From Curtobacterium caseinilyticum (GTDB lineage Bacteria; Actinomycetota; Actinomycetes; Actinomycetales; Microbacteriaceae): a stretch of 64,000 nt of DNA. Shown here piece after piece: positions 18,935 through 47,612 of the stretch (position 1 is the first letter of the stretch; the number at the start of each line of letters is the position of its first letter). A model generated the notes under the pieces. That model did no database searches, was not told the DNA's origin, and saw nothing but the letters and a program-made list of their open reading frames with translations. Location of the stretch: contig NZ_JAUCMN010000005.1 in assembly GCF_030363035.1 (NCBI RefSeq), positions 124,001 to 188,000 of the forward strand. Reading direction: 5' to 3'. Made by a program: the position numbers and the translations under genes.

Positions 18935-19033
18935 CGCCCGTTCCTTCCCAGAACGCCCGCGATGCCTGATGCTCCCGGGCACACCTGGTGGTTCCGGCAG
19001 ACCATGTGTGCTCTTTCCGACCCAGTACGCCCG
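18935..19033 (+). repeat. 99-nt intergenic repeat, copy A
   Basis: Ungapped match to the copies at 25955 (reverse) and 28851: identical TTCCTTCCCAGAAC near the start and GTACGCCCG at the end, about 68-73 percent identity over 99 positions by hand alignment. The central stem is 18977-18988 with 19002-19013, eleven of twelve positions pairing, around a 13-nt loop. It lies between phzF and the promoter of the mannoside operon and fills most of the 301-base gap 18900-19200. Confidence 0.85.
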
Positions 19034-19118
19034 GAAGCACCGAGTATGCGCACGCGCACGCGCACGCCACCCACCGCCGCAACCCCGGCGACCGATGCGG
19101 AGCCGTGACGAAAAGTGC

Positions 19119-19149
19119 TTGACACGAATAAGTCCACACGCTGTACTAA
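19119..19149 (+). promoter_or_regulatory. Promoter of the mannoside operon
   Basis: Consensus TTGACA at 19119-19124 in a locally AT-rich patch. The -10 is either TACTAA at 19144-19149 (19-nt spacer) or TGTACT at 19142-19147 (17-nt spacer). The first gene starts at 19201 with ribosome site AAAGGAG. Confidence 0.6.
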
Positions 19150-19200
19150 TCCTGCGCGCGGGTGACGGAGCCCGCGGACATCCCGTGCAAAGGAGCACCG

Positions 19201-20562
19201 ATGAAACGCCGCACCCGAATCATCGCCGGACTCGCATCCGTGGCAGTCGCCGCGGTCGGACTGGCGGGCTGTTCCAGCTCTGGCTCTGCCTCGAGCGACA
19301 CGATCAAGATCGCCTACCAGAAGTTCGGCGCCTTCCAGCAGCTCGACGCACAGATGAAGGTCGTCAAGCAGGAGTACGAGAAGGCCAACCCGGGCAAGAA
19401 GGTCGAGCTCGTGCCGATCCAGGCGCAGGAGGACGACTACGCCACCAAGCTCGCCCTGATGAACCGCGCACCCGCGACCGCCCCCGACGTCATCTACGAG
19501 GACACGTTCCGCATCAAGGCCGACGCCGACGCCGGCTACCTGCTGCCGATCGACCAGTACACGGACAAGTGGGACGAGTGGGACCAGTTCTACGACAACG
19601 CGAAGCAGGCGGGTGAGGGCGAGGACGGGAAGATCTACGGCGTCCCGATGGGCACCGACACCCGGGCCCTCTGGTACAACAAGGACGTCTTCGCGAAGGT
19701 CGGCCTCCCCGTGCCGTGGCAGCCGAAGACCTGGGACGACGTGCTCTCCGCCGCGAAGACGATCAAGGAGAAGGACCCGGACGTCATCCCGTTCAACATC
19801 TACTCCGGCAAGGCCCAGGGCGAGGCGTCCACCATGCAGGGCTTCGAGATGCTCCTGTACGGCGCGGACGGTGACGGGAACACGCTCTACAAGGACAAGA
19901 AGTGGGTCGTCGGCTCGAAGCAGTTCGAGGACTCGCTGCAGTTCATCGAGGACGTCTACCAGGGTGACCTCGGGCCCACCCCGCAGCAGGCCCTCGACAC
20001 GAACATCGGCACCACGATCACCCAGACGTGGCTCCCGGAGGGCAAGCTCGCCATCGACCTCGACGGCTCGTGGCAGTCGGGCACCTGGCTCGAGACCGGT
20101 ACCGCTCCGTGGAAGGAGTGGAACGACGTGATGGGTCAGGCGCCGTTCCCGACCCAGAACGGCCAGGAGCCCGGGTACAACTCGATGTCCGGTGGATGGA
20201 CGCTCTCGGTCGGTGCGAAGTCGAAGGACCCGCAGGCTGCGTTCGACTTCATCACGATGTTCCTCGACAAGGACGGCTCCATCAAGTACGACTCCGAGAA
20301 CAGCCAGATCGCCGTCCGCAAGGACGTCGCCGAGGACCCGGAGTACACCGGCGCCAACCCGACCTTCGAGTTCTTCTCCGGGCTGGTGGAGCACACCAAC
20401 TTCCGTCCGGCGACGAGCGAGTACGCACAGGTGTCGAACGCCATCCAGGTCGCGATGGAGTCGGTGATGACCGGCCAGCAGTCGCCGTCCGAGGCCGCAG
20501 CGGTCTACGACAAGGCCGTCGAGGGCGTCGTCGGCAAGGACAACACGGTCTCCGCCGGCTAG
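19201..20562 (+). CDS. ABC sugar transporter solute-binding lipoprotein (mannoside operon)
   Basis: 453 residues. Lipoprotein signal ending in the lipobox LAGC (Cys near residue 22), then a family 1 extracellular binding protein (MalE/UgpB-like): IKIAYQKFG at the start, APDVIYEDTFR, MGTDTRALWYNKDVF and GGWTLSVGAKSKDP. It should capture an oligosaccharide outside the membrane for the two permeases that follow. The ATG at 19201 has the AAGGAG ribosome site; an in-frame start 13 codons earlier would spoil the signal peptide. No ATPase is encoded here, so a shared MsiK/MalK-type ATPase elsewhere is likely. GH38 in the same operon suggests an alpha-mannoside ligand. Confidence 0.93.
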   Translation: MKRRTRIIAGLASVAVAAVGLAGCSSSGSASSDTIKIAYQKFGAFQQLDAQMKVVKQEYEKANPGKKVELVPIQAQEDDYATKLALMNRAPATAPDVIYEDTFRIKADADAGYLLPIDQYTDKWDEWDQFYDNAKQAGEGEDGKIYGVPMGTDTRALWYNKDVFAKVGLPVPWQPKTWDDVLSAAKTIKEKDPDVIPFNIYSGKAQGEASTMQGFEMLLYGADGDGNTLYKDKKWVVGSKQFEDSLQFIEDVYQGDLGPTPQQALDTNIGTTITQTWLPEGKLAIDLDGSWQSGTWLETGTAPWKEWNDVMGQAPFPTQNGQEPGYNSMSGGWTLSVGAKSKDPQAAFDFITMFLDKDGSIKYDSENSQIAVRKDVAEDPEYTGANPTFEFFSGLVEHTNFRPATSEYAQVSNAIQVAMESVMTGQQSPSEAAAVYDKAVEGVVGKDNTVSAG

Positions 20563-20585
20563 CGGCGCGACCGTCATACGGACGG

Positions 20586-20630
20586 GCGCGGGGCGCTCGG
20601 CGATGTCGCGAAGCGACATGCGCCCCGCGC
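20586..20630 (+). terminator. Intercistronic hairpin after the binding-protein gene
   Basis: Outer arms GCGCGGGGCGC (20586-20596) and its complement (20620-20630) enclose a second 7-bp stem with a GAA loop. Such structures between a binding-protein gene and its permeases usually stabilise or partly terminate the mRNA so that more binding protein is made. Confidence 0.7.
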
Positions 20631-20730
20631 GGCCCGAGCCCGCGAGGGCCGACGGGTCGGTCCCGCCCCGCGACTCCCGTCCGTCCCTCCCCACCTTCGG
20701 AACCCTCTCCGCACCCGGAAGGCAACCCCC

Positions 20731-21681
20731 GTGTCCAGCACCCCTCTCGCGCCGACGCTGTCGGCGCCCGGTTCACCGAACCACACCGATCCACCTGCAC
20801 CCCGCAAGCGGCGCCCCCTGCGCAACGCGACGCGGGTCGTCCCGCTCCTGCCCGCCGTCGTCCTGCTCGTCATCTTCCTGCTCGGGCCGGTCATCTCGTC
20901 GTTCTACGGGTCCTTCACCAATGCGGCCCTGACCGGCGTCGACGCGGCGAACCAGCAGTTCGTCGGCTTCCAGAACTACGTCGAGCTCTTCCAGGACCCG
21001 GACTTCCCGAAGTCCGTCGTGCTCACGATCGTGTTCCTCATCGCCTCGGCGGTCGTCGGCCAGAACGTGCTCGGTCTCGGGCTCGCGCTCCTGATGCGCA
21101 GCGCCCACAAGGCCGTGCGTGCGATCGTCGGCACCTTCGTCGTCGCCGCGTGGGTGCTGCCCGAGATCGTCGCCTCGTTCGCCGCCTACGCGTTCTTCCA
21201 CGACGAGGGCACGCTCAACTCGTTCCTGGCGTCGATCGGGATCAGCGGACCGAACTGGCTCTACACGTACCCGATGATCGCGGTGATCCTGGCGAACGTC
21301 TGGCGCGGCACCGCGTTCTCGATGCTCGTCTACTCGGCCGCCGTGCAGGAGGTGCCCGAGGAGATCACCGAGTCGGCCGAGGTCGACGGCGCCGCCGGCT
21401 GGCAGCGCCTCGTCTACATCACCCTGCCGGTCATCCGACGGTCCATCTCGACGAACCTCATGCTCACGACACTGCAGACCCTGTCGGTGTTCACGCTCAT
21501 CTTCGTGATGACGGGCGGCGGCCCCGGCACGAACTCGTCGACCCTGCCGATCCTGGCGTACCAGGAGGCGTTCCAGTTCTCGCAGCTCGGCTTCGGGACG
21601 GCGATCGCGACGATCCTGCTCGTGGTCGGCGCGGTGTTCTCGATCATCTACATCAAGGCGCTCAAGCCGGAGGTGGACTGA
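20731..21681 (+). CDS. ABC sugar transporter permease 1
   Basis: 316 residues, MalF/UgpA-type inner-membrane subunit with six helices after a Pro-rich N terminus of about 35 residues. The EAA loop reads EEITESAEVDGAAGWQRLVYITLP. The GTG start at 20731 follows ribosome site GGAAGG. Only 2 nt separate its stop from the next permease start. Confidence 0.93.
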   Translation: MSSTPLAPTLSAPGSPNHTDPPAPRKRRPLRNATRVVPLLPAVVLLVIFLLGPVISSFYGSFTNAALTGVDAANQQFVGFQNYVELFQDPDFPKSVVLTIVFLIASAVVGQNVLGLGLALLMRSAHKAVRAIVGTFVVAAWVLPEIVASFAAYAFFHDEGTLNSFLASIGISGPNWLYTYPMIAVILANVWRGTAFSMLVYSAAVQEVPEEITESAEVDGAAGWQRLVYITLPVIRRSISTNLMLTTLQTLSVFTLIFVMTGGGPGTNSSTLPILAYQEAFQFSQLGFGTAIATILLVVGAVFSIIYIKALKPEVD

Positions 21682-21683
21682 CC

Positions 21684-22583
21684 ATGGCCCTGACCGCTGA
21701 CCGCCCCGTGTCGAACGTCACCCGCTCGGTGACCGCACCGGGCGTGCTCCACATGACCTCGCCGCGGGGACGCACCCTGCGGTGGGTGTCGAACGTCGTC
21801 CTGCTCGTGATCGCCGTGTGCTTCGCAGTACCGCTGCTGTGGCTCGTGCTCGCCTCGTTCGACGCGCAGGCCTCGCTCTCCGTGAAGGTCCCGTCGCAGT
21901 TCACGCTCGACAACTTCACGCAGGTGCTCACCCCCGAGCTGTCGTTCGTCCCGCTTGCGAACAGCCTGCTGCTCTCCGGCGGCACCGCGGTCGTGACGGT
22001 CGTCGCCGCGCTCCTCGCCGCGTACCCGCTGTCCCGGTACAAGATGCGCGTGAACAAGCCGTTCCTGTACAGCATCCTGTTCGGCACCGGCCTGCCGATC
22101 ACGGCGATGATGGTGCCCGTCTACGCGCTGTTCGTGTCGCTCAACCTCATCGACAACATCTACGGCTGCATCTTCTTCCTCGCCGCCACGAGCCTGCCGA
22201 TGGCGATCTGGATGGCGAAGAACTTCATGGACTCCGTGCCGATCTCGCTCGAGGAGGCCGCCTGGACCGACGGCGCCTCGATGTTCACGACGCTGACCCG
22301 GATCGTCGTCCCGCTCATGCGTCCGGGCATCGCGGTGGTCTTCATCTTCGTCTTCATCCAGGCGTGGGGGAACTTCTTCGTCCCCTTCGTGCTGCTGCTC
22401 TCGCCCGACAAGGTGCCCGCCGCGGTGAGCATCTTCAACTTCTTCGGGCAGAACGGGGCCGTCGCGTACGGGCAGCTCGCCGCGTTCTCGATCGTCTACT
22501 CGCTGCCCGTGATCGCCCTCTACGTGCTCGTGTCCCGAGGCCTCGGCGGCGGCAACGCCCTCGCCGGCGGCATCAAGGGCTGA
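21684..22583 (+). CDS. ABC sugar transporter permease 2
   Basis: 299 residues, MalG/UgpE-type. EAA motif is SLEEAAWTDGASMFTTLTRIVVP. Six predicted helices. The GAGGTGGA just before the previous stop probably serves as ribosome site, so translation is coupled to permease 1. The mannosidase gene follows after 110 nt with its own AAGGA site. Confidence 0.93.
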   Translation: MALTADRPVSNVTRSVTAPGVLHMTSPRGRTLRWVSNVVLLVIAVCFAVPLLWLVLASFDAQASLSVKVPSQFTLDNFTQVLTPELSFVPLANSLLLSGGTAVVTVVAALLAAYPLSRYKMRVNKPFLYSILFGTGLPITAMMVPVYALFVSLNLIDNIYGCIFFLAATSLPMAIWMAKNFMDSVPISLEEAAWTDGASMFTTLTRIVVPLMRPGIAVVFIFVFIQAWGNFFVPFVLLLSPDKVPAAVSIFNFFGQNGAVAYGQLAAFSIVYSLPVIALYVLVSRGLGGGNALAGGIKG

Positions 22584-22693
22584 CCGCCTGCTCGGCAGGG
22601 TCGGTGCCCCGGTACCGCCTGCCTCCGACTCCCGGTGGGCCGGTGTCCCGGCACCGCCCTGCCCGACGACCCCTGCTGGAAAGGAACCACTCC

Positions 22694-25600
22694 ATGCACC
22701 ACGACGAACCGCTCGTCGAGGCCCGGATCGCCCGCCTCGTCCGCGACCGCATCGACCCGGCCGTGCACCGTCGCTCGGCCCCGGTCACCATCGACGCCTG
22801 GCAGGTGCCTGACGAACCGGTGCCGTTCGCCGAGGCCGTCGCCGCCGACTACACGCCCTTCGCGGTCGGTGACGCCTGGGGCGCGCGTCCCTGGGGCACC
22901 ACGTGGTTCCGCGTGCGCGGGACCGTGCCCGAGGACTTCGGCGTCGCGCCCGGCACCACCGTCGAGCTCCGCGTCGACCTCGGTTTCTCGAAGCGCCAGC
23001 CCGGGTTCCAGGCCGAGGGGCTCGCCTGGCGTTCCGACGGTTCCACGATCAAGGGCATCGAGCCGCGCAACGACACCGTCCCCGTCGAGGTCGGACCCGG
23101 CGGCTCGTTCGAGGTCTACGTCGAGGCCGCAGCGAACCCGGACATCGGTGGTGACGACTTCCAGGGCGCGACGCCGCTCGGGTCGAAGGCCACCGCCGGC
23201 ACCGAGCCGATCTACCGCCTGCGCGCCCTCGAGCTCGTCGAGCGCGACGACACCGTGTGGGAGCTCCAGCAGGACTTCTGGGTGCTCCGTGGGCTGATGG
23301 CGGAGCTGCCGACCGACGGCACCCGGGGCGCGGACGTCCTGCGTGGCCTCGAACGTGCGGCGGACGCCCTCGACCCCGACGACGTCGCCGGCAGCGCTGC
23401 CGCCACCCGCGAGGTCCTCGCACCGCTGCTGGCCGTGGGTGCGTCCGGCTCGGCCGGCCGGGCGGTCGCCGTCGGGCACGCGCACATCGACTCCGCGTGG
23501 CTGTGGCCGGTGCGCGAGACGATCCGCAAGTGCGCCAGGACCTTCTCGAACGTGCTCGACCTGATGGACCAGGACCCAGACTTCACCTTCGCCTGCTCGT
23601 CCGCGCAGCAGTACGCCTGGATCCGCGACGGCTACCCGTCGATCTGGGCACGCATCAAGCAGCGCGTCGCCGAGGGGCGGTGGATCCCGGTCGGCGGCAT
23701 GTGGGTCGAGTCGGACACGAACCTGCCCGGCGGCGAGGCGCTGGCACGGCAGTTCGTCGCCGGCAAGCGCCTGTTCCTCGAGGAGTTCGGCATCGACACC
23801 CCCGAGGCCTGGCTGCCCGACTCGTTCGGCTACACCGGGGCGCTGCCGCAGATCGTCCGCGCAGCCGGGTCGAAGTGGTTCGTCACGCAGAAGCCCTCGT
23901 GGAACGAGACGAACGTCATCCCGCACACCTCGTTCCACTGGGAGGGCATCGACGGCTCGCGCGTCCTGACGCACCTGCCCCCGGCGGACACCTACAACTC
24001 GGACGTCTCGGCGGCCGACCTGCACCGCGGCGAACGCGGCAACAAGGAACGCGGTGTCGCGAACACCTCGATGCTGCTCTACGGCTTCGGGGACGGCGGC
24101 GGCGGCCCCACCCGCGAGATGGTCGCAGCGGCCCGACGCCAGCACGACCTCGACGGCTCGCCCCGGGTCGACCTCGGCACCCCGGCGGACGTCTTCGAGG
24201 AGCTCGAGCGCGTCCTGCCGGAACCCGCCGTGTGGTCGGGAGAGATGTACCTCGAGTTCCACCGCGGCACGTACACGTCGCAGATCCGCACGAAGCAGGG
24301 CAACCGGCGCTCCGAGCACCTGCTCCGCGAGGCCGAGCTCTGGGCAACGACCGCGGCCGTGCGGCTCGGCGCCGAGTACCCGTACGACGAGCTCGAGTCC
24401 GTCTGGCACACCGTGCTCCTGCAGCAGTTCCACGACATCCTGCCGGGGTCGTCGATCGCGTGGGTGTACGAGAACGCCGAGGCGGAGTACGCCCGGGTGG
24501 CCGAGGTGCTCGAGGGCCTCATCGGCGCGTCGACGACCGCGCTCGCGAGCGGCGGTGCGCCGGCGCTCGCCGGGGTCGGGGCTCCCGCAACCGCGTTCGC
24601 CGGGGACGACGGGGCGCCGGTCGACGCTCCGCGGGGCCCCGGTGCGCTCGGGGCCGGCGGCAGCGCCGAGGTCGGGACCGTCGTGCGGTTCAACGCCTCG
24701 CCCGTCACGTCGGGAGGGGTGACCGCCCTGGGTGGTTCCCCGTCCGACGAGGAGCGACCCGTGCCTCCCGTCCGGAACGGCGACCGCTTCGTGTTCGACA
24801 CCGGTGTCGTCACCGCGACCGTCGACGCGGAGGGTCACGTCGTGTCGTTCGTCGACCACGCGTCCGGACGCGACGCGATCGCGCCCGGCGCCGCGGCCGC
24901 GCAGTACACCGTGTTCCGGGACACCCCGAACCAGTGGGAGGCGTGGGACATCGACCGCGCCTACCAGCGCAGCGGGACCGTGCTGTCCGCGGCGTCCGTC
25001 GAGGTGCTCGACGACGCGCTCGTCGTGACGCGCCCCTTCGGCTCCTCGTCGGTGACGACGCGCTACACCGCCGTCGCCGGCCGCCCGGAGCTGCTCGTCG
25101 AGACCGAGGTCGAGTGGCACGAGCGGCAGAAGCTCCTCAAGCTCGCGTTCCCGCTCGACGTCCGGGCGTCCGTCGCGTCGAGCGAGATCCAGTTCGGGCA
25201 CATCGACCGGCCGACGCACCAGAACACGTCGTGGGACATGGCCCGCTTCGAGACCGCCGCGCACCGCTGGGTGCACGTCGCCGAGCCCGGCTTCGGTGTC
25301 GCGGTCGCGAACGACTCGACGTACGGGCACGACATCACCCGGTCGACGCGCCCTGACGGCGGGACGACGACGCTCGTGCGCGAGTCGCTGCTGCGGGCAC
25401 CGACCTTCCCGGACCCGCACGCCGACCAGGGGCACCACGTGTTCCGCACGGTGCTGCGCACGGGCGAGTCGGTGCTCGACGCCGCGGACTCGGGGTACCG
25501 GCTCAACCTGCCGGTGCGGTCGGTGCCCGGCTCGGCCGAGGTGTCGCCGCTGGTCGTCGTGTCCTCGCCGCAGGTGCTCGTCGAGGCCGTGAAGCTCGCC

Positions 25601-25816
25601 GAGGACCGGTCTGGCGACGTCGTCGTGCGGCTCTACGAGGCCTCGGGCGGTCGGGCGTCGGACGTCGGGGTGTCGTTCGGGTTCGACGTCGACGAGGTCG
25701 AGGCGGTCGACCTGCTCGAGCGACCGCTCGGCTCCGGGTCGTGGACGGCCGGGGATCCGGTCGTGCTGACGCTCCGGCCGTTCGAGATCGTCACGCTGCG
25801 GGTGCGGCGGGGCTGA
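22694..25816 (+). CDS. Alpha-mannosidase, glycoside hydrolase family 38
   Basis: 1040 residues, no signal peptide, so cytoplasmic. Family 38 signatures: AVGHAHIDSAWLWP (zinc-binding His and Asp) near residue 258, WLPDSFGYTGALPQ with the likely nucleophile Asp near residue 376, and QQFHDILPGSSI near residue 580. It should cleave alpha-mannosides imported by the three upstream gene products, releasing mannose. The C-terminal beta-rich domains are complete. An Ala/Gly-rich linker near residues 615-660 separates the catalytic part from the C-terminal domains. A strong hairpin after the stop closes the operon. Confidence 0.95.
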   Translation: MHHDEPLVEARIARLVRDRIDPAVHRRSAPVTIDAWQVPDEPVPFAEAVAADYTPFAVGDAWGARPWGTTWFRVRGTVPEDFGVAPGTTVELRVDLGFSKRQPGFQAEGLAWRSDGSTIKGIEPRNDTVPVEVGPGGSFEVYVEAAANPDIGGDDFQGATPLGSKATAGTEPIYRLRALELVERDDTVWELQQDFWVLRGLMAELPTDGTRGADVLRGLERAADALDPDDVAGSAAATREVLAPLLAVGASGSAGRAVAVGHAHIDSAWLWPVRETIRKCARTFSNVLDLMDQDPDFTFACSSAQQYAWIRDGYPSIWARIKQRVAEGRWIPVGGMWVESDTNLPGGEALARQFVAGKRLFLEEFGIDTPEAWLPDSFGYTGALPQIVRAAGSKWFVTQKPSWNETNVIPHTSFHWEGIDGSRVLTHLPPADTYNSDVSAADLHRGERGNKERGVANTSMLLYGFGDGGGGPTREMVAAARRQHDLDGSPRVDLGTPADVFEELERVLPEPAVWSGEMYLEFHRGTYTSQIRTKQGNRRSEHLLREAELWATTAAVRLGAEYPYDELESVWHTVLLQQFHDILPGSSIAWVYENAEAEYARVAEVLEGLIGASTTALASGGAPALAGVGAPATAFAGDDGAPVDAPRGPGALGAGGSAEVGTVVRFNASPVTSGGVTALGGSPSDEERPVPPVRNGDRFVFDTGVVTATVDAEGHVVSFVDHASGRDAIAPGAAAAQYTVFRDTPNQWEAWDIDRAYQRSGTVLSAASVEVLDDALVVTRPFGSSSVTTRYTAVAGRPELLVETEVEWHERQKLLKLAFPLDVRASVASSEIQFGHIDRPTHQNTSWDMARFETAAHRWVHVAEPGFGVAVANDSTYGHDITRSTRPDGGTTTLVRESLLRAPTFPDPHADQGHHVFRTVLRTGESVLDAADSGYRLNLPVRSVPGSAEVSPLVVVSSPQVLVEAVKLAEDRSGDVVVRLYEASGGRASDVGVSFGFDVDEVEAVDLLERPLGSGSWTAGDPVVLTLRPFEIVTLRVRRG

Positions 25817-25857
25817 GGCGCCGCTGGTCCCGAGGCAGCGGGGCCGGCGGAGAGGTT

Positions 25858-25897
25858 GCGGCGCCGGGGGAGCACGGGTGCGTTCCCCCGGCGCCGC
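25858..25897 (+). terminator. 14-bp hairpin ending the mannoside operon
   Basis: Perfect G/C arms 25858-25871 and 25884-25897 with a 12-nt loop, starting 42 nt after the mannosidase stop and followed by TTCGCG. Confidence 0.85.
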
Positions 25898-25954
25898 TTC
25901 GCGCGCCGGGCGTGACGCCGTGGTCTGTCTCGCACTCGCCGTACCCAGCGGAAT

Positions 25955-26053
25955 CGGGCGTACCAGGTCGATCCGGGCACACCTGGTCTTCCCTTTCCGC
26001 CAGGTATGCCCGGAAGTGCTTGGCATCGCACCTGTTCTGGGAAGGAACGTGCG
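25955..26053 (-). repeat. 99-nt intergenic repeat, copy B (reverse orientation)
   Basis: Read on the minus strand it aligns without gaps to copies A (18935) and C (28851), about 73-76 percent identity by hand. The stem is 25975-25986 with 26000-26011 around a 13-nt loop; all twelve positions pair, one as G-T. With the terminator it accounts for most of the 325-base gap 25817-26141; nothing else is recognisable there. Confidence 0.85.
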
Positions 26054-26141
26054 TCCTGCACAGAGCATCCGGCCTGGAGGCTCGTCCACAGTTCCCGGCT
26101 CCGGCTCACGTCGGCCGGTGGAGACCGGGCACGATCGCGGC

Positions 26142-27101
26142 ATGGAACGTCCACTCCCCATCCTCCGTGCGGGGCCAGCTCGTGAGGTCTCGTGCGACCC
26201 GACGACGCTGCGCCGTCGAGCCCGATCGAGCGGCGCTGACCGGTTGGTCCGCGTCGGCCCGAACGCCTTCGTCGAGGGGACCCGCTGGGACTCGGCGGGC
26301 CCACGGCAGCGCTACGTGACGCGCGTGTACGCCCGACTCGGGCGGATCGGTACTGCGGCCGTCGCCTCGCACGCCTCAGCGGCAGCGGTGCTCGGGCTCC
26401 CGGCGCTCGGGGGCTGGGAGGTCCCGGTGCACGCGACCGTGCCCGAGACGATGTACCGCGGACGGACGCGAGACCTCGTCCTGCACACGCGTCCCGTCCG
26501 CGCCGACGAGCGACTGCCGGCTCGCGGTGTCCGGGTGACGACCGTGCCCCGAACCGTCGTCGACATCGCGATGCGGGACGACCTGCGCTCCGCGGTCGTC
26601 GTCGCGGACGGGGCGTTGCGTGCCGGCACCGGAGCGGCGGAGCTCGCTGCGGCGGTCGATCGCCGAGCACGCGGGCACCGCCGCGCGGAGCACGTGCTCG
26701 GCCTCGCCGACGGCCGCGCCGGGTCGACCGCAGAGTCCTTCGCTCGCGTGGTGTTCCTCGAACTCGGGCTGCCGAGACCGGTCCTGCAGCAGGAGTTCGT
26801 GGTCGATGGGCGCCGGTTCTCGGTCGACTTCTGGTTCCCGGACCAGGGCGTGGTCGTCGAGATCGACGGTCGAGCGAAGTACACGCAGGAGCGGTACCTC
26901 GCAGGTCGGAGTCCCACCGAGGTGTTCCTCGACGAGAAGCGGCGGCACGAGCGGCTGCTGACCGTGCCCGGCGTGCGGACGATCATCCAGCTCGAGTGGC
27001 GCGACCTCTTCGACCCCGATGCGCTGGTCCGACGCTTCCGGGCAGCGGGACTGCCGTGCCCGGTCCGACCGGCCAGGAGCGCACGACCCGGAGCGGCCTG
27101 A
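26142..27101 (+). CDS. AbiEi-like/DUF559-type protein with a PD-(D/E)XK-like C terminus
   Basis: 319 residues. The N-terminal part resembles type IV antitoxin AbiEi-like winged-helix proteins (HASAAAVLGLPALGG, RTVVDIAM), while the C-terminal hundred residues hold FSVDFWFPDQGVVVEIDGRAKY and EKRRHERLL, matching the DUF559/Vsr-like nuclease fold with its Asp...Glu-x-Asp core. Such proteins are common singletons in Microbacteriaceae; the real role is unknown and no toxin partner gene is next to it. ATG at 26142 begins the protein-like sequence. It lies between repeat copies B and C. Confidence 0.7.
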   Translation: MERPLPILRAGPAREVSCDPTTLRRRARSSGADRLVRVGPNAFVEGTRWDSAGPRQRYVTRVYARLGRIGTAAVASHASAAAVLGLPALGGWEVPVHATVPETMYRGRTRDLVLHTRPVRADERLPARGVRVTTVPRTVVDIAMRDDLRSAVVVADGALRAGTGAAELAAAVDRRARGHRRAEHVLGLADGRAGSTAESFARVVFLELGLPRPVLQQEFVVDGRRFSVDFWFPDQGVVVEIDGRAKYTQERYLAGRSPTEVFLDEKRRHERLLTVPGVRTIIQLEWRDLFDPDALVRRFRAAGLPCPVRPARSARPGAA

Positions 27102-27235
27102 TCCAGTGGGCGCTCGCGCGGCGGTCCGAGTCAGCCGCCGGTCGTCGGGCGAGCCGCAGCTCGCCGTGTGGGCCGCAGCGCATGGGGTGACCTGACCGGG
27201 AGCCGGCCCAGGGGGACACGGTTAGCGTCGCGCGC

Positions 27236-27976
27236 ATGGCTGTCACCGAGATCTGGCTCGTCCGCCACGGGGAGTCGAGCGCGAACGTCGCCGCTGCCAG
27301 AGCCGAGGCCGCGGGCGCCGACGTCATCGAGGTCGACCATCGCGACGCCGACGTCCCGCTCAGTCCGTTGGGGGAGGAGCAGTCCCGAGCGCTCGGGCAG
27401 GAGCTCGCCGACCGCGGCGTCGACGACGTCCCGGTGGCGCTGTGGGTCTCGCCCTACCGCCGGGCGCAGCAGACGATCGGCATCGCGCTCGACGCCGGCG
27501 GACTGACCGAGCCGCCCAAGCGGGTCGACGAACGACTCCGCGACCGAGAGCTCGGCGTCCTCGACCTGCTCACCCGCGACGGCGTTCGCAACCGGTACCC
27601 GGACGAGGAACGCCGACGACAGTGGCTCGGCAAGTACTACCACCGCCCTGCTGGCGGGGAGTCCTGGGCGGACGTGATGCTCCGCCTCCGCACCGTGCTG
27701 ACGGACGTCGACCGGCTCGAGGGCCCCGGACGGTTGCTCGTCGCCGCGCACGACGCGGTCGTGATGCTCACCGTCGCCGTCTGCCTCGACCTCGACGAGC
27801 ACGCACTGATGGCCTTCGCCGAGGACCACACGGTGGCGAACGCCTCGCTCACACGACTGCACCGAGACGGACCGGGTTCTCCGTGGACCCTCGAGGAGTT
27901 CTCCGCCGTGGGGCACCTCGACGACGACGAGGTCACCGAGCACAGCGGCCGGAAGGACGACGCCCGTGTCGACTGA
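27236..27976 (+). CDS. Histidine phosphatase / phosphoglycerate mutase-like protein
   Basis: 246 residues. N-terminal LVRHGES carries the phosphorylated histidine; SPYRRAQQT, the acidic DRELGVLD and the later AHDAVVM complete the branch 1 active site. The substrate is not predictable. TAGCGT (27223-27228) is seven bases before the ATG (leaderless pattern). The end overlaps nnrD by 11 nt, so the two are co-translated. Confidence 0.88.
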   Translation: MAVTEIWLVRHGESSANVAAARAEAAGADVIEVDHRDADVPLSPLGEEQSRALGQELADRGVDDVPVALWVSPYRRAQQTIGIALDAGGLTEPPKRVDERLRDRELGVLDLLTRDGVRNRYPDEERRRQWLGKYYHRPAGGESWADVMLRLRTVLTDVDRLEGPGRLLVAAHDAVVMLTVAVCLDLDEHALMAFAEDHTVANASLTRLHRDGPGSPWTLEEFSAVGHLDDDEVTEHSGRKDDARVD

Positions 27977-28844
27977 ACCCGATGCCCCGCAGCACATCAC
28001 GCCGAACGTCCTCCGCGAGTGGGCGCTGCCGGAGCCCGGCGCCGGCAAGTACGGCCGCGGTCAGGTGCTCGTCATCGGCGGCGCCGCGTACACGCCCGGG
28101 GCGGCGATGCTCTCCGCCCTCGCCGCACTCCGGGTCGGTGCCGGGCGGCTCACCCTGGCCGTCGGCGCGAGCGTCGCGAAGCACGTGGCCGTGGCCGTGC
28201 CCGAGTCCGGCGTGGTCCCACTGGACGAGGACGACGACGGGCACGTCGTGGTGGGGGCGCTCGCCGCCGTGGCCGACACCGCCGGCACGTCCGACGCCGT
28301 GCTCATCGGGCCCGGGCTGGACGAGCCCGACGGCGCGCGTGACCTGGTCGCGGGTATCGCCGACGCGGTCGGACCGGACACCTTCGTCGTGCTCGACGCC
28401 TTCGCGCTCGGCGTCGCGGCGGACGTCGAGGACCAGCTCCGGCCGTTGCACGGTCGTCTCGTCCTCACGCCGAACAGCGGCGAGGCCGAGCGGCTCCTCG
28501 GGCGGGACTGCGGGGACGACGACGTCGCCGACGCCCGCGAGATCGCCGAGCGGTACGGCGCCGTGGTCGCGCTGTCCGACGTCATCGCGGCCCCGGACGG
28601 ACGGACGTGGATCAAGGGCACCGGCTCCGGTGGGCTCGGGACGAGCGGCAGCGGCGACGTGCTGTCCGGCGTGGTCGTCGGGCTGCTCGCGCGCGGCGCC
28701 GATCCGGCACAGGCGGTCGCCTGGGCGTCCTACGTGCACGCGGCCGCCGGGGACCGACTCGCGGTGCAGGTCGGGCCGCTGGGCTACCTGGCCAGCGAGC
28801 TCCTCACCGAGATCCCGCGCGTCCTGGTCGAGCTCGGCGGCTGA
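27966..28844 (+). CDS. nnrD: ADP-dependent NAD(P)H-hydrate dehydratase
   Basis: 292 residues. The ribokinase-like YjeF C-terminal domain is complete: GQVLVIGGAAYTPGAAMLSALAALRVGAG, LTPNSGEAERLLG and KGTGSGGLGTSGSGDVLSG (nucleotide and hydrate binding). It repairs hydrated NADH/NADPH using ADP or ATP. The YjeF N-terminal epimerase domain is not fused here. GTG start at 27966 lies inside the end of the phosphatase gene. The 99-nt repeat copy C starts 6 nt after the stop. Confidence 0.93.
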   Translation: MSTEPDAPQHITPNVLREWALPEPGAGKYGRGQVLVIGGAAYTPGAAMLSALAALRVGAGRLTLAVGASVAKHVAVAVPESGVVPLDEDDDGHVVVGALAAVADTAGTSDAVLIGPGLDEPDGARDLVAGIADAVGPDTFVVLDAFALGVAADVEDQLRPLHGRLVLTPNSGEAERLLGRDCGDDDVADAREIAERYGAVVALSDVIAAPDGRTWIKGTGSGGLGTSGSGDVLSGVVVGLLARGADPAQAVAWASYVHAAAGDRLAVQVGPLGYLASELLTEIPRVLVELGG

Positions 28845-28850
28845 CGACGT

Positions 28851-28949
28851 CGCCCGTTCCTTCCCAGAACGGCTGCGATACCTGGTCGGAACGGGCGTAC
28901 CTGGCGGAACGGAACGACCAGGTACGCCCGGAACGCAGAGGTACGCCCG
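28851..28949 (+). repeat. 99-nt intergenic repeat, copy C
   Basis: The cleanest copy: stem 28893-28904 with 28918-28929 is a perfect 12-bp pairing (GGGCGTACCTGG with its complement) around a 13-nt loop. It starts with CGCCCGTTCCTTCCCAGAAC and ends in GTACGCCCG like copy A. It lies at the convergent 3' ends of nnrD and the DUF1905 gene. Confidence 0.85.
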
Positions 28950-28968
28950 AGTTCACCTGGTCCCGTAG

Positions 28969-29061
28969 GGCCAGGGCCAGGGCCAGGGTCAGGGCCAGGG
29001 TCAGGGCCAGCGCCAGAGCCAGCGCCAGCGCCACAGCCAGCGCCAGCGCCAGCGCCAGACA
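28969..29061. repeat. Hexanucleotide repeat tract (GCCAGG/GCCAGC)
   Basis: About fifteen degenerate 6-bp units, GCCAGG grading into GCCAGC, with GTCAGG and GCCACA variants. It lies between copy C of the 99-nt repeat and the stop of the DUF1905 gene; non-coding. Confidence 0.9.
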
Positions 29062-29080
29062 GGGCCCCACCCGCACCCGC

Positions 29081-47448: not shown

Positions 47449-47528
47449 GCGTCGGCCGTCATGCGTCGACGGGGATGCTCGGGTGCATGTCCCCAAGGGT
47501 GACACGAACGTGCCCGCTCGGTACGATC

Positions 47529-47612
47529 GAGGGGTCGCGACTGGCGTTGGATGGGTCACCATCGGGGAGCGACACCTGACACGGAGCGCGGCCGTACGCC
47601 TGGGCCGCGCCC
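47529..47612 (+). ncRNA. ZTP (pfl) riboswitch upstream of glyA-folD
   Basis: The two conserved blocks of pfl RNAs are visible: GCGACTGGCG (about 47537-47546) with GGGTCACCATCGGGGAGCG (about 47553-47571), and the distal loop CCGTACGCCTGGG closed by GCGCGG/CCGCGC (47586-47591 with 47605-47610). ZTP riboswitches sense ZMP/ZTP, the AICAR-derived signal of 10-formyl-THF shortage, and turn on one-carbon genes. The downstream genes glyA and folD fit that role exactly. Confidence 0.92.

What the first reader, a model, noticed from the sequence alone, without database searches (positions are those of the whole stretch)
18935..28949. A 99-nt intergenic element in three copies with a covarying stem
18935-19033, 25955-26053 (minus strand) and 28851-28949 align without a gap over exactly 99 positions, about 68-76 percent identity by hand. 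TTCCTTCCCAGAAC near the start and GTACGCCCG at the end are invariant. A 12-bp stem with a 13-nt loop is kept in all three although stem bases differ: position 5 of the stem is A-T in A and B but G-C in C, and position 6 is C-G, T-G and T-A. Equal length, equal spacing and paired changes point to selection on structure: a small RNA, an RNA-binding site, or a miniature mobile element. I recognise no described family.
Basis: seen in the sequence. Interest (0 to 1): 0.75.

Follow-up and report, generated by a model that had tools for sequence, protein, structure and literature searches.

The report
Gene-end hairpin repeats of Curtobacterium
The three 99-base stretches belong to a repeat family with about thirty strong copies in this bacterium's genome and relatives in most Curtobacterium genomes searched, usually lying where genes end; the layout stays fixed while the core word differs between species, and what the repeats do is not yet proven.

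Summary
In detail: three gap-free 99-nt copies, 68-76 of 99 positions identical, far above anything else in the window. It is the short form of a larger element: a leader (GTTCCTTCCCAGAAC), 21 nt, an inverted 13-nt unit (CGGGCGTACCTGG), a 13-nt near-palindromic loop, then the direct unit (CCAGGTACGCCCG) repeated 2 to 11 times at 19-nt pitch. The window's Curtobacterium genome has 31 strong copies; 44 of 60 Curtobacterium genomes match and 16 do not; outside the genus matches are rare and weak. Copies avoid divergent gaps, favour convergent gene ends and show no significant strand preference; 21 of 27 copies analysed in a second genome lie at orthologous sites. A second type has the same layout but another unit (CCTCCTACGCGCG) and occupies the same sites in some species. 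Best reading: a REP/BIME-like dispersed repeat, without REP tag and with no RAYT transposase in this genome, acting as a strand-symmetric gene-end hairpin. Covariation within a type is weak; between types four stem pairs change on both sides. Termination is inferred only: no T-tract, and just 2 of 6 tested sites without the element carry a substitute hairpin.

The parts
18935..19033 (+). Element A (decayed dyad), 35 nt after the PhzF-like gene stop and before a gene for an ABC-type solute-binding protein
   Evidence: (84.9 bits)
18940..18954 (+). Leader of A, GTTCCTTCCCAGAAC
18976..18988 (+). Inverted unit of A
19002..19014 (+). First direct unit of A (degenerate; 11 of 13 pairs with the inverted unit)
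19021..19033 (+). Second direct unit of A (19-nt pitch)
25955..26053 (-). Element B, between the GH38 alpha-mannosidase gene and a hypothetical gene; site occupied in 19 of 21 genomes compared
   Evidence: (102.4 bits)
26034..26048 (-). Leader of B
26000..26012 (-). Inverted unit of B
25974..25986 (-). First direct unit of B
25955..25967 (-). Second direct unit of B
28851..28949 (+). Element C, 6 nt after the stop of the NAD(P)H-hydrate dehydratase gene, convergent with a DUF1905 gene
   Evidence: (102.4 bits)
28856..28870 (+). Leader of C
28892..28904 (+). Inverted unit of C (13 of 13 pairs)
28918..28930 (+). First direct unit of C
28937..28949 (+). Second direct unit of C

Best explanation
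The three copies belong to a family of dispersed, extragenic, REP/BIME-like repeats that is almost confined to Curtobacterium. Layout: leader 15 nt, 21 nt, inverted 13-nt unit, 13-nt near-palindromic loop, direct 13-nt unit, then more direct units at 19-nt pitch (2 to 11 counted). Shown: copies lie mostly in gaps that hold at least one gene end, have no significant strand preference, are largely inherited in place between the two genomes compared, differ in direct-unit number between orthologues, and exist in two unit types that occupy the same sites in different species. Inferred: when transcribed from either side the dyad folds into a strong hairpin at or near the mRNA 3' end, where it limits read-through and/or protects the 3' end. 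The extra direct units look like products of tandem duplication that only a sequence-reading factor would need. How the family first spread is unknown.
For: 31 R1 matches of 70 bits or more in the own genome; unit within 1 mismatch 161 times against 23 for the reversed control; 44 of 60 genus genomes hit. Of 56 classified copies in two genomes 29 lie in convergent, 23 in codirectional and 4 in divergent gaps, against 27, 80 and 42 of 149 element-free gaps of 120 nt or more in the longer loci held (Fisher P 6e-6 for convergent, 0.001 for divergent; with copies sharing a gap counted once, 25 of 52 convergent, P 7e-5, and 4 of 52 divergent, P 0.002). No significant strand preference in codirectional gaps: 7 against 16 (P 0.09). 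21 of 27 copies analysed in G055 lie at sites orthologous to copies in G000. Sites A, B, C are occupied in 15 of 19, 19 of 21 and 18 of 21 genomes. Strong predicted hairpins at B and C. At site A two genomes without the element there have an unrelated strong hairpin after the stop (G003 -34.9 kcal/mol, z -6.8; G046 -46.2, z -8.0).
Against: No T-tract: the one terminator-like match in the region is at chance level (1 found, 1.8 expected). Of six sites A and C without the element that could be folded, only two have a substitute hairpin. Copy A itself is not predicted to fold through its dyad. Elements are more conserved than their flanks in only 10 of 19 orthologue pairs. Within types covariation is weak. 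Hairpin function alone explains neither the conserved leader nor the extra direct units. 16 of 60 genomes have no match to the family. No expression data were available.
Confidence: 0.42

Rival explanations
1. Non-autonomous mobile DNA (MITE- or REPIN-like) copied by an unidentified transposase; the gene-end bias only reflects selection against insertions in genes and promoters.
For: Dispersed copies beside unrelated genes (20 flanking proteins scanned); patchy presence in the genus (16 of 60 without); one site occupied in 9 and empty in 6 of 15 genomes; site C of G054 (L144) holds a type I element followed by leftover type II units, while its near relative G022 (L147) has a type II element there, and L070 has a type I and a type II dyad side by side, as if a new element had arrived beside an old one; an inverted dyad is what REPINs look like (PMC3116915, abstract).
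Against: 21 of 27 G055 copies are orthologous in place with G000; dispersed copies within a genome share at most 83% (G000) or 87% (G055), so no recent transposition is visible in these two genomes; empty sites at the one locus read have differing remnants and no visible target duplication; no Y1_Tnp in the own genome; no match in viral contigs (exact two-unit type I pattern), plasmid or phage records (blastn of element C).
Confidence: 0.33
2. An array of binding sites for a sequence-specific DNA-binding protein: a boundary, nucleoid or supercoiling factor that reads the 13-bp unit at 19-bp pitch, with its specificity switched between type I and type II lineages.
For: The unpaired direct units keep the unit as the dyad does, also in type II arrays; fixed 19-nt pitch; mostly one type per genome (20 type I, 13 type II, 3 both of 60); no significant strand preference.
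Against: No candidate protein identified; array homogeneity can also come from tandem duplication; unit number drifts between orthologues (11 against 3, 9 against 6); mixed sites and chimeric units exist.
Confidence: 0.18
3. A strand-specific small RNA or cis-acting 3'-UTR RNA that starts with the leader.
For: Conserved leader (collected partly through the leader itself); architecture shared between types.
Against: No strand preference of the expected kind relative to flanking genes; no promoter-like match in the region; no Rfam match on the elements at E 5; leader missing at intact dyads in G006 and G012 site A and G056 site C.
Confidence: 0.05

Closest known systems
REP / BIME elements (GTAG and CGTC families; PMC3733652, passages and section 15 read; BIME recalled)
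   Same: Short palindromic extragenic repeats, many copies, mostly between convergent or codirectional genes near 3' ends; CGTC families also lack a dedicated transposase.
   Different: No GTAG or CGTC tag next to the dyad, no Y1_Tnp/RAYT gene in the own genome, an extra 15-nt leader, a one-directional 19-nt array; the passages seen list other phyla for its families, and the word Actinobacteria does not occur in its main text.
REPINs with RAYT-specific groups GI-GIII (PMC3116915, abstract and section 12 read)
   Same: Two units in inverted orientation forming a hairpin; several sequence groups; tandem arrays exist.
   Different: No RAYT found in the own genome; copies mostly inherited in place between the two genomes compared; different types at the same orthologous sites.
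Intrinsic transcription terminators (recalled)
   Same: Strong hairpin, often close after stop codons; no strand preference, as a palindrome would allow.
   Different: No T-tract; extra conserved leader and extra units; long dispersed-repeat similarity.
Minisatellites / satellites (PMC6749651, seen only in a search listing)
   Same: Direct 19-nt units vary in number between orthologous loci.
   Different: Anchored to an inverted dyad and usually a leader, and dispersed over the chromosome.

Membership tests
REP/BIME | Extragenic palindromic repeat in many copies per genome | tested here: met
REP/BIME | Preference for gene 3' ends, avoidance of divergent gaps | tested here: met
REP/BIME | Unpaired GTAG or CGTC tetranucleotide at one end of the stem | tested here: not met
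   by eye on the consensus of 82 type I copies; no such tag beside the dyad
REP/BIME | Associated RAYT (Y1 transposase) gene | tested here: not met
   PF01797: 0 matches in the own genome, positive in 5 of 14 control genomes; other genomes of the genus not searched
MITE | Target-site duplication at filled against empty sites | tested here: inconclusive
   one site, 9 filled and 6 empty, no duplication seen but element ends are not sharply defined
MITE | Recent dispersed near-identical copies | tested here: not met
   highest dispersed identity 0.83 (G000) and 0.87 (G055); two genomes only
Intrinsic terminator | Stable GC-rich hairpin | tested here: met
   B and C yes, A no; sites A and C in other species mixed
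Intrinsic terminator | T-tract after the stem | tested here: not met
Intrinsic terminator | Transcripts end at the element | not testable with these tools
   no expression data
Described RNA family (Rfam 15) | Score above gathering threshold | tested here: not met

The most novel reading that the evidence does not exclude
The 13-nt unit is the recognition word of an unknown, lineage-specific DNA- or RNA-binding factor. Several times in the genus the factor changed its specificity (type I CCAGGTACGCCCG, type II CCTCCTACGCGCG) and dozens of dispersed sites followed, by conversion or replacement, while site positions and the 15+21+13+13+13+6+13 layout stayed fixed: a REP/RAYT-like co-evolving system built on a different protein.
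Probability: 0.2. Interest if true: 0.78.

Novelty: new variant of a known kind. Interest (0 to 1): 0.5.

Why it matters
Dispersed palindromic repeats with RAYT transposases are, as far as I recall, best known from Gram-negative bacteria. Here a Gram-positive genus carries a comparable family with a different anatomy and no RAYT in the genome searched. The genus offers a natural experiment: type I, type II, mixed and element-free species, with many orthologous sites whose occupant can be compared. That makes it testable what keeps such families alive: terminator-like use, a binding protein, or selfish copying.

Tried and rejected
Rfam at gathering and permissive thresholds gave nothing on the elements. 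RAYT hypothesis: no PF01797 match in the own genome. Phage or plasmid carriage: no match. Function by neighbourhood: 27 proteins scanned (7 in the window, 20 of the 60 flanking genes of 30 G000 copies); 24 have a Pfam family, ordinary enzymes, transport proteins or uncharacterised domains; none is a transposase and there is no common theme. Stronger conservation of the elements than of their flanks: not shown, 10 of 19. Strong within-type covariation: not shown (the sums mix related copies). Clean terminator replacement: only 2 of 6.

Corrections made on the way: the G000 rows and the pair identities assumed oriented loci and are wrong; one search replaces them. In one search two neighbouring G000 copies (C2:434632 and C2:434763, one gap) were measured as the same copy twice, hence the identity of 1.0; their class (convergent) is not affected, and recounts by gap. 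Rows dropped: of 85 leader-anchored candidates one chance match (L071 minus strand) was dropped before counting (84), and two out-of-register copies (L019:1422-1520, L069) before the alignment (82). The 84 copies were collected through the leader, so their leader conservation is biased; a scan anchored on the dyad found the leader at 10 or more of 15 positions in 147 of the 175 dyads in its tally, but in loci partly fetched by the leader. Type II candidates: 28 found, 21 with a leader kept. In one search two of the 19 alignments (L114, L122) look misplaced, with aligned element identity below the ungapped value. One of 30 G000 copies overlapped a called gene near a contig end and was left out of the context counts. 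The full check of the report led, which showed mixed sites and chimeric units; I therefore lowered the best explanation from 0.45 to 0.42, the protein-site rival from 0.20 to 0.18 and the novel case from 0.22 to 0.20, and raised the mobile rival from 0.30 to 0.33.

Papers: PMC3733652 (passages and section 15), PMC3116915 (abstract, outline, section 12); PMC6749651 only in a search listing. Eight paper searches gave no listed title or abstract that described such repeats in Curtobacterium or Microbacteriaceae; most papers of subscription journals are not held.
Full report
WHAT IS THERE. Copies B and C carry a 13-bp dyad with all 13 positions paired and a 13-nt spacer; copy A has 11 of 13 pairs and is not predicted to fold through it. 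The window lies in a 3.45-Mb genome of 23 contigs. A leader-plus-GCGAT pattern scanned over genome contigs found 45 stretches, all titled Curtobacterium, and some of these hold copies that look orthologous to the window's (L058, L069), so I take the host to be Curtobacterium.

THE FULL ELEMENT IS LONGER THAN 99 NT. Other copies in the same genome show the leader (GTTCCTTCCCAGAAC, usually after CGCCC), 21 nt, the inverted unit CGGGCGTACCTGG, a 13-nt near-palindromic spacer, the direct unit CCAGGTACGCCCG, and then further direct units with 6-nt linkers, so at a 19-nt pitch. In 19 orthologue pairs the counted direct units run from 2 to 11. The window's copies are short forms with two direct units. 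The unit occurs within one mismatch 161 times in the genome against 23 for the reversed pattern. Some copies are locally duplicated (C1:8466-8968, three in a row, 91-95% identical).

HOW COMMON. A covariance model from 82 gap-free copies gives 65 matches at E <= 0.001 in the own genome, counting both strands of the palindrome; 31 of them reach 70 bits. In 60 Curtobacterium genomes 44 have matches and 16 have none. In 199 family genomes 5 match: three of the four same-genus genomes shown in that listing, and two genomes of other genera with at most 35 bits. No match was found in the viral, plasmid and phage collections at the sensitivity used.

WHERE IT SITS. I called genes with a codon model of my own. 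In G000 (29 classifiable of 30 copies) and G055 (27 of 27 analysed), 29 copies lie between convergent genes, 23 between codirectional and 4 between divergent genes; counting copies in one gap once, 25, 23 and 4. Element-free gaps of at least 120 nt split 27/80/42. In an overlapping, partly leader-selected set of longer loci the split with elements is 33/62/1 of 96. In codirectional gaps the leader lies towards a neighbour's stop in 7 and towards a neighbour's start in 16; in the leader-selected loci of other species it is 13 and 13. So no significant strand preference is seen, which speaks against a strand-specific RNA and for something symmetric, like a palindromic hairpin or a duplex-DNA site. 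Flanking genes are unrelated: glutamine synthetase, G6PD, glycerate kinase, a carbamoyltransferase, alpha-amylase and others.

HOW OLD AND HOW MOBILE. 21 of 27 copies of G055 have flanks that match the flanks of a G000 copy over at least 1.2 kb; one of these pairs was recovered in opposite orientation with low element identity (0.61). Orthologues otherwise share 75-91% of the element; the median pair of copies within a genome shares 71-72%. Sites A, B and C were read in 21 genomes (20 fetched): B is occupied in 19 of 21, starting at the same place next to a conserved TGTGNAGG block; C in 18 of 21; A in 15 of the 19 with the PhzF gene in the stretch. At another site the element is present in 9 and absent in 6 of 15 genomes, the own genome among the empty ones, with different short remnants and no visible target duplication. 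G044 at site C may be a deletion between CGCCCG repeats. The picture is old elements, local duplication and loss, and no visible recent jumping in the two genomes compared in full.

TWO TYPES, ONE LAYOUT. At sites A, B and C some species carry a sister element with a leader like GTTCnnnCCCATCGC and unit CCTCCTACGCGCG (inverted CGCGCGTAGGAGG), in the same 15+21+13+13+13+6+13 layout. Type II occupies A in 2, B in 3 and C in 3 of the genomes above. Pattern counts, judged against the 16 element-free genomes, put the 60 genomes at 20 type I, 13 type II, 3 both, 8 low or other and 16 none. On a tree of 47 NAD(P)H-hydrate dehydratase genes these labels need 15 changes against a shuffled mean of 24.7, so they are clustered but have switched repeatedly; G042 (I) and G016 (II) are sisters (one gene, quick tree). 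Comparing the consensus of the types, 4 of the 13 stem pairs change on both sides and none on one side; over all 19 pairs of the extended dyad 5 change on both and 2 on one. The extra direct units, which have no partner in the dyad, carry the type too, and dyad pairing alone would not require that. The types are not perfectly separate: site C of G054 holds a type I element followed by a type II unit, where its near relative G022 has a type II element; L070 has both dyads side by side; these are 2 loci (3 type II units) in all loci held. Chimeric units such as CCAGGTACGCGCG and CCGGGTACGCGCG occur. So at least some changes of type look like a new element arriving beside, or recombining with, an old one.

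IS THE STRUCTURE SELECTED? Mixed. RNAalifold finds only 7 consensus pairs, one with a double change. In one search the named dyad exceeds slid controls (covariation 0.113 against at most 0.053) and shuffles, but copies are related. Within type I pairing is 91.0% against a shuffled mean of 89.1% and maximum of 90.0%; within type II it does not exceed the shuffles. Between orthologues 38 of 247 stem pairs changed, and 12 of those are standard pairs in both. I read this as a dyad of like units that is kept roughly, not as a finely tuned RNA.

HOW IT MOST LIKELY WORKS. Shown: location at gene ends, symmetry, strong predicted hairpins in B, C and many of the orthologous sites folded. Inferred: a gene-end hairpin that limits read-through or shields 3' ends, as hypothesised for REPs (PMC3733652, abstract). 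For: site A in G003 and G046 has a different, strong hairpin where the element is missing. Against: G033 at A and G008, G003 and G044 at C have none (2 of 6 have one; G010 at A was too short to fold), and there is no T-tract. The leader and the array remain unexplained by this and are the best argument for a unit-reading protein.

COMPARISON AND NOVELTY. In location, copy number and palindromic nature it works like REP/BIME elements; it fails two defining features tested here (GTAG/CGTC tag; RAYT in the own genome), so I do not file it as a REP. I found no description of it in the searches listed under Tried and rejected. I rate it a new variant of a known kind.

Noticed in passing
window 47527-47612 (+): ZMP/ZTP riboswitch above its Rfam gathering score (60.4 bits).
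   Followed up: no
window 28960-29070 (+): Degenerate run of GCCAGG/GCCAGC-like hexamers directly after element C, before the convergent DUF1905 gene; a similar run follows the orthologous copy in G055.
   Followed up: no
about L160 1297-1455 (-), L330 768-926 (-), L331 736-894 (-), L323 1195-1353 (+), L328 1170-1328 (+): In five Curtobacterium genomes without an element at site C (four element-free, one type II) a conserved tRNA-like RNA (T-arm-like stem, then GTAGCTCAACGAG-AGAGCCCCGTTTTG) follows the NAD(P)H-hydrate dehydratase gene. ARAGORN finds no tRNA in the four of these loci scanned; the only Rfam hint there is a sub-threshold YrlA match in L160 (23 bits). The next called gene in L160 has no Pfam match.
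   Followed up: partly
window 26054-26105: A block (CTGTGGACG-GCCTCCAGGC-CTGTGNAGGA) conserved across species directly 5' of element B, kept also in G006 and G044 where no match to the neighbouring hypothetical gene was found.
   Followed up: partly
L172 and L184 after the NNR gene; 5' flanks of copies L003, L007, L011: A second recurring motif, GACGGGAGGCGCGG paired with CCGCGCCTCCCGTC, looks by eye like another gene-end hairpin of the genus.
   Followed up: no
G055 chromosome, loci L191-L217: 21 of 27 copies lie on the minus strand, spread over the whole chromosome, so replication direction does not easily explain it; possibly chance.
   Followed up: no
window 26244-27101 (+): Hypothetical protein without a Pfam match that reads like a DUF559-type nuclease (recalled, not tested); no match to it was found in G003, G006, G008 and G044 at this locus.
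   Followed up: no
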